Of a stretch of DNA of 64,000 nucleotides, positions 15,061 to 21,526 are shown piece after piece (position 1 is the stretch's first letter; the number at the start of each line of letters is the position of its first letter). Source of the DNA: an uncultured Bacteroidales bacterium. GTDB taxonomy: Bacteria; Bacteroidota; Bacteroidia; Bacteroidales; Muribaculaceae. Below the pieces are notes generated by a model. That model saw only the letters and a program-made list of their open reading frames with translations. It was not told where the DNA came from and did no database searches. The stretch lies in contig CASENC010000049.1 of NCBI GenBank assembly GCA_949289215.1, positions 186,001-250,000 of the forward strand, read 5' to 3'. The translations under genes and the position numbers were made by a program.

Positions 15061-15125
15061 TATTCAATTAGGAATGAGGCGGAATGACGGTTTGTGCGTT
15101 ATGTAGAGATGTCCGCCGATGTCGC

Positions 15126-15722
15126 TTAGATTGTAAAGTCACTTGTAAAATCGTTTTCAATTTGATGCTTGTAAATTATATCAAATGGTTGCGAAAGTAG
15201 CGTTTTGTCGAAAAAGCATATTTGTACTTTGCCCAATTGCTTTAGTGTGATGTCGTTTTTGGGGAATTTTATTAATGTACCTTGTAATGTTTTAGGGCTT
15301 GGCCACACTCTGATGGCTTTGTATTTGAATTTAGGCAATGCCTTTAGGTATGCAAGAACGTATGAGAAACTGATTTTATTTAATTTCTGTTCCTGTTTGA
15401 GATATTTGGCACATTTGATAAAGTCATCAAATAAGGATAAGTCGCCCACCATATCGAAAAGGAGTGGAGAGTGCATGTCGAATGAAGTGCGGCATATAAT
15501 ATACCCTTTGCCGTAATTCGTGTAAATAGTTTCCCCCCACCATTTGGCATCGTCTAAGCGAGAATCCCAAAAGTAATAGCCTTCTCCAAGCCAAGGTTCG
15601 GTTGAACCTGTTTTTAGTTTTCCATCTGTTTTGTACAATGAACAGAAATAAGGACCATGTCTCTTGACTTCGTCGTCGTTATGTCGGTCCTCTAATGTTT
15701 GGTATATTGTTATGTATTTCAT
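15126..15722 (-). CDS. putative ADP-ribosyltransferase-fold toxin of a chaperone-linked toxin-antitoxin cassette
   Basis: 198-residue soluble protein, no signal peptide or membrane segment. Residues about 43-62 (EPWLGEGYYFWDSRLDDAKW) match the glycine-rich GxGFYF..(x)n..A..W strand-helix pattern of DUF3990-like and related ADP-ribosyltransferase-fold toxins; this assignment is from motif shape only. The start overlaps the stop of the SecB-like gene by four bases (ATGA), so the two are translationally coupled. Composition is very AT-rich compared with flanking panC. As last gene after a small protein and a SecB-like chaperone it occupies the place of the toxin in a toxin-antitoxin-chaperone unit. 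Not proven; it could have another nucleotide-related function. Confidence 0.6.
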   Translation of the reverse strand: MKYITIYQTLEDRHNDDEVKRHGPYFCSLYKTDGKLKTGSTEPWLGEGYYFWDSRLDDAKWWGETIYTNYGKGYIICRTSFDMHSPLLFDMVGDLSLFDDFIKCAKYLKQEQKLNKISFSYVLAYLKALPKFKYKAIRVWPSPKTLQGTLIKFPKNDITLKQLGKVQICFFDKTLLSQPFDIIYKHQIENDFTSDFTI

Positions 15723-16126
15723 TTTGCGACTGTATTGGAGCGCAATTTATCGGTGAGTCCTATTAGGTTTATAGTAGGCAGTAATATAGGTCGTGTGTTT
15801 GCTTGCAGTGAAATGGTGCTGACGAAAGCCCTTATGTATGGGAATAATATGGCAATACTATTAGGATAAAAAAAATCAGGTATTTCATTTAATGAGACGG
15901 TTCCTCTAAATGAAAAATATGCAACGCATGAAATGTTGATGACTGCTGTGCCAGTTTCCTTACATGTGATTATTGTGTCAAATGATAGTTCGTATCGATT
16001 TTCCTTCTGGTAGAAAACACCTTTGGGGTTGAATGATATGTTCAACTCGGCATTATTGGGAATATTAAAATCGATAGATGCCTTTTTAAATTTGTATGTA
16101 TCTAATTTAAATGCTGCTTTTTCCAT
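15719..16126 (-). CDS. SecB-like chaperone of toxin-antitoxin cassette
   Basis: 135-residue protein of the SecB fold. The C-terminal half carries the SecB signature: YPNSIAILFPYIRAFVSTI corresponds to the CPNILFPYARECITSM region of classical SecB, followed by LLPTINLIGL, equivalent to LAPVNFDALF. The N-terminal half gives the expected beta strands. Bacteroidales do not usually use SecB for general export, and genes of this kind next to a toxin act as antitoxin-specific chaperones (known for the mycobacterial HigBA-SecB and CmdTAC systems). It begins four bases after the small first gene and overlaps the third gene by four. Confidence 0.8.
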   Translation of the reverse strand: MEKAAFKLDTYKFKKASIDFNIPNNAELNISFNPKGVFYQKENRYELSFDTIITCKETGTAVINISCVAYFSFRGTVSLNEIPDFFYPNSIAILFPYIRAFVSTISLQANTRPILLPTINLIGLTDKLRSNTVAK

Positions 16127-16130
16127 AGAG

Positions 16131-16385
16131 TTATGCTGCTAAATAATATGGAGAATCTGCATCAATTTCTTTGGTGGCAGGACAATTTGATATTTCTAAT
16201 TCTTGAACACTGCTTGATTTAGTGAGTATAATTTCACTGTTCAGGAAATCACGTATAGATTCGGCATACTCAATGACATCCGGACCTATGTCATTAAGGT
16301 GCTTTCGTTTATTGAAATCATCCTGTAGAATATCTGATGGAGTATTTTCAAAATATTTTTTAATGCTGTCTAATAAGGTACCCAT
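16131..16385 (-). CDS. small putative antitoxin with ssrA-like C-terminal tail
   Basis: 84-residue acidic protein, first of the three-gene cassette. It opens GTLLDSIKKYFENTPSDIL, then a helical, charged middle. No DNA-binding motif is evident. The last five residues are YYLAA, nearly the YALAA end of the ssrA degradation tag recognised by ClpX. In known chaperone-linked systems the antitoxin has a C-terminal tail bound by the SecB-like chaperone and is destroyed when the chaperone is lost; this tail is a natural candidate for that role. Family not recognised with certainty; the antitoxin role is inferred from position. Confidence 0.6.
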   Translation of the reverse strand: MGTLLDSIKKYFENTPSDILQDDFNKRKHLNDIGPDVIEYAESIRDFLNSEIILTKSSSVQELEISNCPATKEIDADSPYYLAA

Positions 16386-16441
16386 AATTCTAAATTTTGA
16401 TTATGCATAATTATTGCAGTTGATATATTATTCTTTTTATG

Positions 16442-16472
16442 CAAAGATAATGCAAATTGATCGCAAAGCAAA
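16442..16472 (-). promoter_or_regulatory. promoter of the three-gene cassette
   Basis: Minus strand TTTG (16469-16472), 19 bases, TATCTTTG (16442-16449), ending 57 bases before the first ATG. The cassette thus has its own start of transcription. Confidence 0.75.
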
Positions 16473-16584
16473 AAAACGACTTATTGATTTTTATTGTCGA
16501 GATGTAGTTCGTCTTTACAAAGATATATGTTGAATATATGAAATAACAAATCAAATTGAGGTTTGTTTTTTTAGTTCTGATAAA

Positions 16585-16616
16585 TGTTCCGGCACTTGGC
16601 TGGCTGTGCCGGAACA
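16585..16616 (-). terminator. hairpin after small membrane protein gene
   Basis: Perfect 11-base arms TGTTCCGGCAC (16585-16595) and its complement (16606-16616) with a 10-base loop; only a weak T run follows on the minus strand. It separates the 79-residue gene from the cassette. Confidence 0.6.
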
Positions 16617-16638
16617 CTGTGTGGGCATGGCGGTGTGG

Positions 16639-18784: not shown

Positions 18785-19030
18785 TTAATCTACAATCTAT
18801 AAAAACATATATATTTCAGAATTAGAATCATTGGTTTGCCAAATTTAGATATAATTTTAATATACGCAAAGAAAAAATTAAATAAAATTTCGTGTTTATC
18901 GGTTGGTTGTGGGTAAAATCTTGAAATTGTAACTGTTGTATGCTTTGTAGCATGATGATATGAAGTAATGAATGTTTTTTGATTGGTAAAGATTAGCCGT
19001 CGGTCGATTAATTTTGGCGAAAAAATACCA

Positions 19031-21526
19031 ATGAAAAACAGTGATAAACGAGTAACAGTTAAATTTACCGGTGCTGAAAAATATGCAGATGGGGAAAATG
19101 CTCCGGCCGGAATGTGCGAACGGCTTGTAAACCTGCGCGAGAAGCGTGATGCCATGGTTGCCGTTGGGCATTGCCTGCCGGTAGGGGAGCTTACTGACGG
19201 CGAAAGAATTGCTGCCGTGCATTATGTGGCCGGTGGAAGGAACTTGATAAGCGTAATCGGCAACAGGCTGTATTGGCATGGCGTGATAGGAGCCGATGGG
19301 GAAATCTCGATGAAAGGAGTAGTGATAACTTCGGCCGGAATCGAGATAACATCGGTGGTTCCGGTAGGTGAATTTCTGGTATGCGCCACAGCTAACGAGC
19401 CCGTGATTGTAAAATATGATATGGCATCGGCCGGTTATGCAGTGCCGGATACAACCGGGGCTGTACCAAGGCTGCTGCTTTCGCCATCGGGGAAATATGC
19501 CATGAATGATACCGTTGCCGCTTATGAATTTGACACGCCGCTCACGCATTGGCAACGTCCGTTGCCCACCGGTGACGTGGAACATATATCGGCCAATGCC
19601 GCCGATGCCTATAGGAGGTTGGCAAGCCGTGCCGCAACCGAAGGTTATATGGTGCAGCCGGTGTTGGCGCGATATGCGGTAAGGCTGTGGAACGACGATT
19701 ACCTGTGGGTGTCGGCTCCGGTGTTGATAGGCAACGGCATACAATCGTTGTCGTCGGAAACCACGGCAATGACCGACGGCAGTGCATTCACCGGTGTGAA
19801 TACGGCACGTGTGGCTGTGGATGCTTTCAGGTTATCGGTGGTAGTGGAAAAAGGGATTGATGCGGCTTGTGACCGGTTGGTGAAATCAATCGACATATTG
19901 GTGAGCGACGAAGTTGACCCTGTGGATTATTCGTCGCTTGTGGATTATTCATGCACTCGTTCCACCGAAGGCGGATCGGTGGTTTATGGATTTTCATTCA
20001 AGTTCCCGGCGGCTGATGGTGGTACATTGCTTGCACGGTTACTTGCAACCAACAGTTGGCGTGTGGCTGCGAGCATTAGCGATTTTGATTCGTTAAGGCT
20101 GGGCAGGGTGAATGTCGTCAATTGCACACCATCGGCCAATGCCACTGATTTGCCTGCCGGGGTACATCGTTATGAAATCACCGGTTTCGGTGGCGGAACG
20201 GTTGATGCTGCCTATCTTGGCCGGTGTGCATCAGCGTCGGCGCACAGTTATTGCCATACCGCACTCTGCTGCCATAATCGTCGGTTGTTTGCAGCTTGCG
20301 ACAAGGCTGTTCTTGTCAATCCGTGGCATCCGTCGCAGTTTTGGTGTGGAAAACTAGTACAAGGGACTTGCCGCATACTTGTCGAGACAAGTATTGCAAC
20401 CGGTGCCGGTGTATTTGCTACCGTTTGGCAAGGCACATCTGACTTTGTTCCCGAGTCGCTGGCTCCGGTTGTGTCTTATCCCGATGCACGGGCCACGTCG
20501 ATGACTGTTTCGATATTGCCGGCAGGAGGCACTATGAAAAGGCTGACGGTGCAGTTGCATGGAGTTCCCGGCAGTGATATGGCTTGTTCGGCAGCGGGGA
20601 ATATGCAACCGTTGCAATTTACCGATACCGGGAGCGATATGTTACCGGTGCCATCGGAATCGATTGTTGCCGATAACATGACGGGGCGGATAGTTGAATA
20701 TGAGGAGGGTAACCCGCTTGCCGTGGCGGCAGTGCACAATGTGTGTGGAGGTGTGATACGTGCCATTGCTGCGGCCGATCACCATTCAAACGACAACATT
20801 GGTACGCCGCTTTACATTTTTGCCGACGACGGCACATATGCAATGCCTTACAGGGTGGCGACGTCGCGATATTCGCCCGCCGTGATTGTTTCGCGCACTG
20901 CGGTGGCACCGGGGGTGCTGCCTGTTGCGGCCGATGATGCGGTGTATTTTGCCACCACCCGGGGTGAAGTGTGCCGCCTGCACCGATATACCGTGGAGGT
21001 GGCATTGCAAGGTATCGAAGCGACTGCGCTGGCGTGGAATTGCGGTGAACGTGAATTGTGGATGCTGACCCGTGCAGGGGTTGTTGTATTAATGCAGCAT
21101 GGAAGGACGTGTGTGCGAAATGATGCCGAATTTGAGAAATTATTCGGCTTGTCATCGGTTGATGCGTATGCAGCTGATGCTTCCGGTCGATTGCTGGATG
21201 TTTCACGCGAAGACAACTTGTCGCCTGTGGATGTGGAGTTGCTTACCTATCCCATGGCAATTGCCGATGTGGCAGCCGTACCGGTGGCTGTGGTGTGGAA
21301 AGTGTTTGCCGATGATGCCGGATTGTCGCTTGCCGTAACCGGCGAGACCGGTGCAAGCTGCCATGGTGCAACATTGTGCCGATTGAATGTGAACGGACGC
21401 ATTGCCGCTCCGTTGCGGGTGCGCCTTATATCGCCGCCGGTGCGCACTGTAAGGCTGTCGGTTTCCGGAACTGTCAAACCGGGAACAGTTGTCGGGGATG
21501 CGGTGTTGGAGATTAGAACCCGGTAA
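19031..21526 (+). CDS. large phage-tail-like beta-rich orphan protein
   Basis: 831 residues from the ATG at 19031 (MKNSDKRVTVKFTGAE); a 16-residue upstream extension is improbable. No signal peptide, no transmembrane segment, beta-strand-rich. Two segments look like those of phage virion tail or stabilisation proteins: NRRLFAACDKAVLVNPWHP near residue 415, and PLYIFADDGTYAMPYRVATS, then AADDAVYFATTRGEV, near 593-645. The early phrase ERLVNLREKRDAMVAVG also fits the opening NLR pattern of such proteins. No capsid, terminase or lysis gene is close. Could be a prophage relic or a domesticated protein. Function unknown; family assignment is tentative. Confidence 0.65.
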   Translation: MKNSDKRVTVKFTGAEKYADGENAPAGMCERLVNLREKRDAMVAVGHCLPVGELTDGERIAAVHYVAGGRNLISVIGNRLYWHGVIGADGEISMKGVVITSAGIEITSVVPVGEFLVCATANEPVIVKYDMASAGYAVPDTTGAVPRLLLSPSGKYAMNDTVAAYEFDTPLTHWQRPLPTGDVEHISANAADAYRRLASRAATEGYMVQPVLARYAVRLWNDDYLWVSAPVLIGNGIQSLSSETTAMTDGSAFTGVNTARVAVDAFRLSVVVEKGIDAACDRLVKSIDILVSDEVDPVDYSSLVDYSCTRSTEGGSVVYGFSFKFPAADGGTLLARLLATNSWRVAASISDFDSLRLGRVNVVNCTPSANATDLPAGVHRYEITGFGGGTVDAAYLGRCASASAHSYCHTALCCHNRRLFAACDKAVLVNPWHPSQFWCGKLVQGTCRILVETSIATGAGVFATVWQGTSDFVPESLAPVVSYPDARATSMTVSILPAGGTMKRLTVQLHGVPGSDMACSAAGNMQPLQFTDTGSDMLPVPSESIVADNMTGRIVEYEEGNPLAVAAVHNVCGGVIRAIAAADHHSNDNIGTPLYIFADDGTYAMPYRVATSRYSPAVIVSRTAVAPGVLPVAADDAVYFATTRGEVCRLHRYTVEVALQGIEATALAWNCGERELWMLTRAGVVVLMQHGRTCVRNDAEFEKLFGLSSVDAYAADASGRLLDVSREDNLSPVDVELLTYPMAIADVAAVPVAVVWKVFADDAGLSLAVTGETGASCHGATLCRLNVNGRIAAPLRVRLISPPVRTVRLSVSGTVKPGTVVGDAVLEIRTR

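What the first reader, a model, noticed from the sequence alone, without database searches (positions are those of the whole stretch)
15126..16385. AT-rich three-gene cassette that looks like a toxin-antitoxin-chaperone phage-defence system
Seen: three tight minus-strand genes (gap 4 bases, then ATGA overlap) with their own promoter, the middle one with a clear SecB-like signature (YPNSIAILFPYIRAF, LLPTINLIGL) and the third with a GEGYYFWDS...AKW pattern of ADP-ribosyltransferase-fold toxins. Local composition is about 27% GC in one 60-base line (hand count), against about 70% in a line of neighbouring panC, suggesting transfer. Known: SecB-like chaperones stabilise dedicated antitoxins in HigBA-SecB and CmdTAC systems, and CmdTAC uses an ADP-ribosyltransferase toxin. 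Inferred: an undescribed Bacteroidales member of this type, ordered antitoxin, chaperone, toxin.
Basis: partly seen in the sequence, partly recalled or inferred. Interest (0 to 1): 0.85.

Follow-up and report, generated by a model that had tools for sequence, protein, structure and literature searches.

The report
Reordered CmdTAC phage-defence operon, Muribaculaceae
A gut bacterium carries a small, probably imported three-gene 'suicide switch' related to the known CmdTAC phage-defence system, but with its genes in a different order and an altered active site in the toxin.

Summary
In detail: three tight minus-strand genes (84, 135, 198 aa) at 35.6% GC in a 49.4% window. PADLOC matches genes 2 and 3 to PD-T4-9 (4e-48, 1e-40), which is CmdTAC, a published SecB-chaperone/ADP-ribosyltransferase phage-defence system. 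Differences: the order is antitoxin-chaperone-toxin. Of 21 loci of that order in my tree, 20 share one chaperone clade. In it 19 of 20 toxins carry Gln where the published CmdT logo has the catalytic His. The antitoxin ends YYLAA, like the host's tmRNA tag GENNYALAA; E. coli CmdA ends LAA. Of 9 genomes of the genus 2 hold the cassette and 2 show the empty site. Toxin and chaperone are under purifying selection. Most likely it is an abortive-infection switch working like CmdTAC. Toxicity, target, trigger and defence are inferred; no fold prediction could be run.

The parts
16131..16385 (-). Gene 1, putative antitoxin (CmdA-like), 84 aa
   Evidence: ORF; no hit in PADLOC or NCBIfam, one weak Pfam hit (E 0.15, below cut-off); similar small ORF upstream of the chaperone in relatives; diverges faster than its partners (71% against 90-91% identity; dN/dS 0.24)
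16134..16148 (-). C-terminal YYLAA of gene 1, ssrA-tag-like, probable ClpXP degron
   Evidence: Own tmRNA tag GENNYALAA; E. coli CmdA ends LAA and is degraded by ClpP; the same-genus relative ends YYLAA too
15719..16126 (-). Gene 2, SecB-like chaperone (CmdC-like), 135 aa
   Evidence: PADLOC PD-T4-9_C 4.1e-48; Pfam SecB 2.2e-5, 24.8 bits against cut-off 26; NCBIfam SecB models only weakly, far under their cut-offs
15126..15722 (-). Gene 3, ADP-ribosyltransferase-type toxin (CmdT-like), 198 aa
   Evidence: PADLOC PD-T4-9_A 1e-40; profile-profile match to distant relatives of which two hit Pfam PARP below cut-off
15699..15701 (-). Gln8 codon, at the place of the catalytic His of the H-Y-[E,D,Q] clade
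   Evidence: Alignment of 33 toxins plus 6 relatives
15573..15575 (-). Tyr50 codon, inferred catalytic Tyr (equivalence to Y41 of ECOR22 CmdT is inferred)
   Evidence: Tyr in 39 of 39 rows
15222..15224 (-). Gln167 codon, inferred third triad residue ([E,D,Q])
16442..16472 (-). Promoter-like site TTTG-N19-TATCTTTG upstream of gene 1
16518..16550 (-). Second promoter-like site upstream of gene 1
15079..16624 (.). DNA that stands in place of 123 bp at the empty site of genome G006
   Evidence: Flanks align at 88.5% up to 15078 and at 93.3% from 16625; both joints printed

Best explanation
A toxin-antitoxin-chaperone (TAC) abortive-infection module of the CmdTAC kind. At rest, the 84-aa antitoxin binds the ADP-ribosyltransferase-type toxin, and the SecB-like chaperone (probably a tetramer) holds the antitoxin's tail and hides its YYLAA end. 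In infection a phage protein made in bulk (in E. coli the T4 capsid protein) draws the chaperone away. The tail is exposed and read as an ssrA-like degron by ClpXP, the antitoxin is destroyed, and the freed toxin ADP-ribosylates an RNA target (mRNA for E. coli CmdT), so translation and the phage crop stop. Shown here: gene set, homology of toxin and chaperone, recurrent operon, degron-like tail, patchy distribution with prophage carriage, purifying selection. Inferred by homology: complex, trigger, proteolysis, RNA target, defence.
For: PADLOC PD-T4-9_A 1e-40 and PD-T4-9_C 4.1e-48. All 26 toxins of alignment A4 match both PD-T4-9_A models. Chaperone beside the toxin in 4 of 4 matching relatives, in 12 of 13 family genomes with a toxin match (11 by profile, G735 read by eye; the 13th, G675, has a toxin with three stops and no chaperone found), and in 8 of 8 viral contigs. 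In the order sample 15 of 28 have it and a 16th is a fused remnant; the 12 without score at most 41 bits. Antitoxins end in Ala-Ala in 15 of 32, against 0 of 33 toxins, 0 of 33 chaperones and 5 of 462 ORFs of the fetched loci. One relative (L036) ends ENNYALAA, the last eight residues of its own genome's tmRNA tag. Published mechanism of CmdTAC: PMC11618068. Prophage carriage. Empty sites. dN/dS 0.09 (toxin) and 0.10 (chaperone).
Against: No experiment. The toxin has Gln for the catalytic His, so activity is not assured. The host's draft (85% complete) shows no clpX above cut-off, although 9 of 9 relatives tested do. Of 21 antitoxins in this gene order, 12 end in a hydrophobic residue and only 7 in AA, so the degron is not general. 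In the phylum sample only 4 of 6 genomes with a toxin match show a chaperone.
Confidence: 0.85

Rival explanations
1. The TAC architecture is real, but the toxin of this branch is not a classical NAD-dependent ADP-ribosyltransferase: with Gln instead of His it is partner-dependent, has another substrate, or acts without catalysis.
For: Gln at the His position in 19 of 20 toxins of the branch, while 11 of 12 toxins of the other order and 6 of 6 relatives without a chaperone have His. PARP9, listed with Q-Y-T, is described as inactive alone and active with its partner (passages of PMC7955679).
Against: Tyr50 and Gln167 are kept in 20 of 20 of the branch; dN/dS 0.09 between two species; a Psychrobacter plasmid system in the published order also has Gln.
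Confidence: 0.2
2. A TAC module kept for stress response or for stability of the mobile element rather than phage defence.
For: TAC systems were studied outside phage biology first (PMC11618068 discussion). Eight neighbours scanned with Pfam gave housekeeping or unknown proteins; the neighbourhood was not scanned with PADLOC.
Against: The closest characterised homologue is a phage-defence system; homologues ride on prophages.
Confidence: 0.2
3. A decaying remnant without function.
For: Some relatives are broken: G751 toxin split over two frames, G675 toxin with three stops, G872 one ORF matching both toxin and chaperone.
Against: All three window genes are intact; toxin and chaperone are under purifying selection.
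Confidence: 0.04

Closest known systems
CmdTAC (PD-T4-9) of E. coli ECOR22
   Same: Toxin and SecB-like chaperone match its family models; small variable antitoxin; antitoxin ends LAA; three-gene operon.
   Different: Order antitoxin-chaperone-toxin instead of toxin-antitoxin-chaperone; Gln instead of His in the triad; the antitoxin has no family match. The ECOR22 sequences themselves were not compared residue by residue.
Other TAC systems (HigBA-SecB of Mycobacterium, MqsRAC)
   Same: SecB-like chaperone protecting an antitoxin with an addiction tail (described in PMC9519451 and PMC11618068).
   Different: Their toxins include endoribonuclease families; MqsRAC toxin and antitoxin are stated to be unrelated to CmdTAC. 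Not compared here by sequence.
Toxin-like relatives without a chaperone found here (L041, L044, L045, L047, L049, L052)
   Same: A nine-row profile of these six plus three distant toxins of the published order (L046, L048, L051) matches the toxin profile at 98.5%, 1.6e-15; same YF motif and Gln third residue.
   Different: His kept in 6 of 6; no chaperone by profile within the fetched flanks of up to 1.5 kb; preceded by a short ORF of another kind.

Membership tests
CmdTAC | CmdT homologue by profile | tested here: met
   PD-T4-9_A 1e-40
CmdTAC | CmdC (SecB-like) homologue within two proteins of CmdT (2024 calling rule) | tested here: met
   PD-T4-9_C 4.1e-48, gene overlaps the toxin gene by 4 bases. 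PADLOC models were used, not the DefenseFinder models of the paper
CmdTAC | Order toxin, then a second ORF, then chaperone (2022 search rule) | tested here: not met
   Order is antitoxin, chaperone, toxin. The 2024 rule as quoted asks only for nearness
CmdTAC | H-Y-[E,D,Q] triad (logo described in PMC11618068) | tested here: not met
   Q-Y-Q by alignment: Tyr and third residue met, His not. A conserved trait rather than the calling rule
CmdTAC | Antitoxin ends LAA (ClpXP signal) | tested here: met
   YYLAA
CmdTAC | Toxin plus antitoxin toxic, chaperone rescues; chaperone released by capsid protein; mRNA ADP-ribosylation; phage defence | not testable with these tools
   Needs experiments
CmdTAC | 1:1:4 complex and ART/SecB folds | not tested
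   Structure prediction switched off
ADP-ribosyltransferase (PARP/DTX, H-Y-[E,D,Q] clade) | Sequence-profile membership | tested here: inconclusive
   No direct Pfam hit for the window toxin and only scattered weak unrelated hits for 26 toxins. Indirect: hhalign 98.5% to a nine-row profile, of whose seven scanned members L048 (with chaperone, published order) and L044 hit PARP at 6.6e-4 and 1.9e-3, below cut-off
SecB-like chaperone | Pfam SecB at the curated score | tested here: inconclusive
   2.2e-5 over residues 28-123, 24.8 bits, 1.2 bits under the gathering score; NCBIfam SecB equivalogs far under cut-off

The most novel reading that the evidence does not exclude
A Bacteroidota branch of CmdTAC that has rebuilt its switch: an operon led by the antitoxin, a toxin whose NAD-site His is replaced by Gln (so catalysis may need the antitoxin or another partner, as described for PARP9, or may have another target), and two alternative antitoxin ends, either one like the host's own tmRNA degradation tag or a hydrophobic tail read by another route. 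Trigger, target and proteolysis would then differ from the E. coli system.
Probability: 0.25. Interest if true: 0.6.

Novelty: new variant of a known kind. Interest (0 to 1): 0.45.

Why it matters
CmdTAC is among the first defence systems shown to work by ADP-ribosylating mRNA, and the papers seen here study it in E. coli. A gut Bacteroidales branch with a reordered operon and Gln for the catalytic His lets one ask which parts of the mechanism are essential. The tmRNA-tag-like end of the antitoxin makes the 'chaperone hides a degron' model directly testable, by removing five residues.

Tried and rejected
Solved-structure searches with the toxin alone, the chaperone alone, profiles of both, a distant-relative profile and L048 gave no credible match. 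Pfam on 26 toxins gave only scattered weak hits. Phage records gave no toxin match and plasmids one, in Psychrobacter, covering 75% of the query. I considered that the antitoxin's N-terminal part might be a portable domain of other modules: a profile search of 99 genomes found it at the system's own loci in 4 genomes plus one weak hit (0.0058, in a 334-residue frame), so this was dropped. I considered that Gln for His goes strictly with gene order: rejected, since L018 (published order) has Gln, L026 (new order) has His, and L009 (new order, outside the main chaperone clade) has Gln followed by His. I considered that the exact tag copy in L036 was recently copied from the tmRNA gene: the first 15 bases of the shared part are identical, the last 9 coding bases differ synonymously, so copying is undecided. 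A look for 'LAA', 'ssrA', 'ClpXP', 'gene order' and 'Bacteroid' in PMC5105189 found nothing.

Full report
WHAT IS THERE. Three minus-strand genes lie between panC and a small ORF in a Bacteroidales genome; a relative with 91% identical toxin is recorded as uncultured Muribaculaceae. Gene 1 (16131-16385) codes 84 aa, gene 2 (15719-16126) 135 aa, gene 3 (15126-15722) 198 aa; the gap is 4 bases, then ATGA overlap. GC is 35.6% against 49.4% for the window; genes 2 and 3 are the lowest of 50 non-overlapping ORFs of at least 100 aa. Two promoter-like sites of the Bacteroidales pattern lie upstream; the pattern is recalled.

WHAT THE PROTEINS ARE. Gene 3 matches PADLOC PD-T4-9_A at 1e-40 and gene 2 matches PD-T4-9_C at 4.1e-48; gene 1 matches nothing there. 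Gene 2 also matches Pfam SecB at 2.2e-5, 1.2 bits below the curated score, and NCBIfam SecB models far below theirs. PD-T4-9 was renamed CmdTAC by its discoverers (passages of PMC9519451). The later paper (PMC11618068: abstract, sections 6, 12 and 34, and passages) reports that CmdT is an mRNA ADP-ribosyltransferase, that CmdA ends in LAA and is degraded by ClpP, and that the T4 capsid protein draws CmdC away. The PADLOC release dates from 2023. A same-class relative of another family (G113) scores 269 bits on model PDLC04068, so this branch, or one like it, is probably inside that model; this last point is inference.

FOLD OF THE TOXIN. By sequence the link to ADP-ribosyltransferases is indirect. 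The 26-row toxin profile matches at 98.5% a nine-row profile of distant relatives: six without a chaperone and three distant toxins of the published order. Of seven of these nine that I scanned, two hit Pfam PARP under its cut-off: L048, which has a chaperone beside it, at 6.6e-4, and L044 at 1.9e-3. With the published CmdT work this is good but not conclusive.

DISTRIBUTION. Toxin matches: 4 of 61 relatives, 6 of 395 genomes of the phylum sample with one PADLOC model, 13 of 397 of the family and 28 of 393 of the order; these samples overlap. A chaperone by profile lies beside the toxin in 4 of 4, 4 of 6, 11 of 13 and 15 of 28. In the family set a twelfth (G735) was read by eye, so the profile can miss one. 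In the order set one more (G872) is a single ORF matching both genes. The 12 of the order set without a chaperone score at most 41 bits; six of them that I read are a different family with a short ORF upstream, the other six were not read. All 8 viral contigs found carry chaperone and toxin in the window's order, with a small ORF upstream (by profile, or for L068 and L069 by position). From four of these contigs 9 proteins were scanned with PHROGs: lysis, head, neck, tail, integrase and terminase genes appear; the other four contigs were not scanned. The window chaperone itself matches a phage family of unknown function at 2.3e-12.

GENE ORDER. I used 33 loci with both genes usable: 21 in the order antitoxin-chaperone-toxin, 12 in the published order. 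The searches were seeded with the first kind, so the proportions are not frequencies. In the chaperone tree 20 of the 21, six of them viral contigs, form one clade (support 99/99); the other, L009, lies outside, and the order label needs 2 changes. The toxin tree is less resolved (4 changes) and has long branches, which lower its weight.

ACTIVE SITE. In a 39-row alignment (33 toxins, 6 relatives without a chaperone) Tyr50 is Tyr in all. At the His position the 20-row clade has Gln in 19 and His in 1 (L026); the third residue is Gln in 20 of 20. Of 12 toxins in the published order 11 have His and one (Psychrobacter, L018) Gln; 8 of 12 have Gln at the third place. L009 has Gln followed by His, and Ile at the third place. 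The 6 relatives all have His. The published logo is described as H-Y-[E,D,Q]. PARP9 (Q-Y-T) is a recorded precedent described as active with a partner (passages of PMC7955679). Conservation, and dN/dS of 0.09 between two species, argue that the Gln enzyme is used.

ANTITOXIN AND DEGRON. The window antitoxin ends YYLAA; the host's tmRNA tag is GENNYALAA. Of 32 antitoxins 15 end in AA: 7 of 21 in the new order, 8 of 11 in the published order (for the 33rd locus, L048, one search listed no antitoxin ORF). Controls: 0 of 33 toxins, 0 of 33 chaperones, 5 of 462 ORFs, a redundant set that also holds module genes. The rows are related, so the Fisher values are only indicative. In L036 the end is ENNYALAA, identical to the last eight residues of that genome's tag. 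Against a universal degron: 12 of the 21 end in a hydrophobic residue. clpX was not found above cut-off in the 85%-complete host draft but was in 9 of 9 relatives tested, so I take it as missing from the draft.

MOBILITY. Of 9 genomes of the genus, 2 hold the cassette, at the same site. G006 and G008 have the same flanking genes without it; G006 has 123 bp where the window has 1546 bp. In four others (G002, G004, G005, G007) about 10 kb upstream of panC hold none of the five other neighbour genes searched, and G003's contig ends within 1 kb, so those five say nothing about the site. G006 is nearer to the window genome by panC (94% against 92%) yet lacks the cassette. Synonymous divergence of the cassette genes (0.51-0.57) is lower than that of panC (0.88) between the two carriers, which fits transfer, though base composition may contribute.

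LITERATURE. 'CmdTAC' occurs in 8 papers of the library and 'PD-T4-9' in 5 (listings). 'CmdT' with 'Bacteroid' occurs in 3: one by title unrelated, one review of which I saw only the listing, and the 2022 paper, whose passage says that more than half of its 21 systems are abundant in groups including Bacteroidetes, without naming CmdTAC there. No paper holds Muribaculaceae, 'defence systems' and 'toxin-antitoxin-chaperone' together. I saw no mention of the reordered operon or of Gln in the passages read. The gene-map figures (Extended Data Fig. 1b of the 2024 paper; Fig. 5a of the 2022 paper) are not held, so they may show it.

VERDICT. A real, intact, mobile CmdTAC-type module; a reordered, Gln-bearing branch of a known kind. 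Its function is inferred by homology.

Noticed in passing
L041, L044, L045, L047, L049, L052: A toxin-like, weakly PARP-like family without a chaperone (GFHG..., WLG.G.Y.WENN, HIQ), four matches in one genome (G826), each of the six preceded by a 55-81 aa ORF: possibly a separate two-gene toxin-antitoxin module.
   Followed up: partly
L036:1250-1492 (-): Putative antitoxin ending in ENNYALAA, identical to the last eight residues of that genome's own tmRNA tag; coding DNA identical for 15 bases, then synonymous differences.
   Followed up: partly
window 15126-15140 and the same end in relatives: 12 of 20 toxins of the branch end in aromatic-x-aliphatic, resembling the hydrophobic ends of many antitoxins; meaning unknown.
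   Followed up: no
window 18983-21526 (+): 847-aa ORF without a Pfam match, with a homologue at 54% identity near pyrE in genome G008.
   Followed up: no
L081 (tmRNA locus of G317): ARAGORN gives an unusual tag peptide (GLKTFIRRRKLRSCCII), perhaps a misread tmRNA.
   Followed up: no
L058 (G872): One ORF matches the toxin profile at its start and the chaperone at its end: probably a deletion remnant of the module.
   Followed up: no
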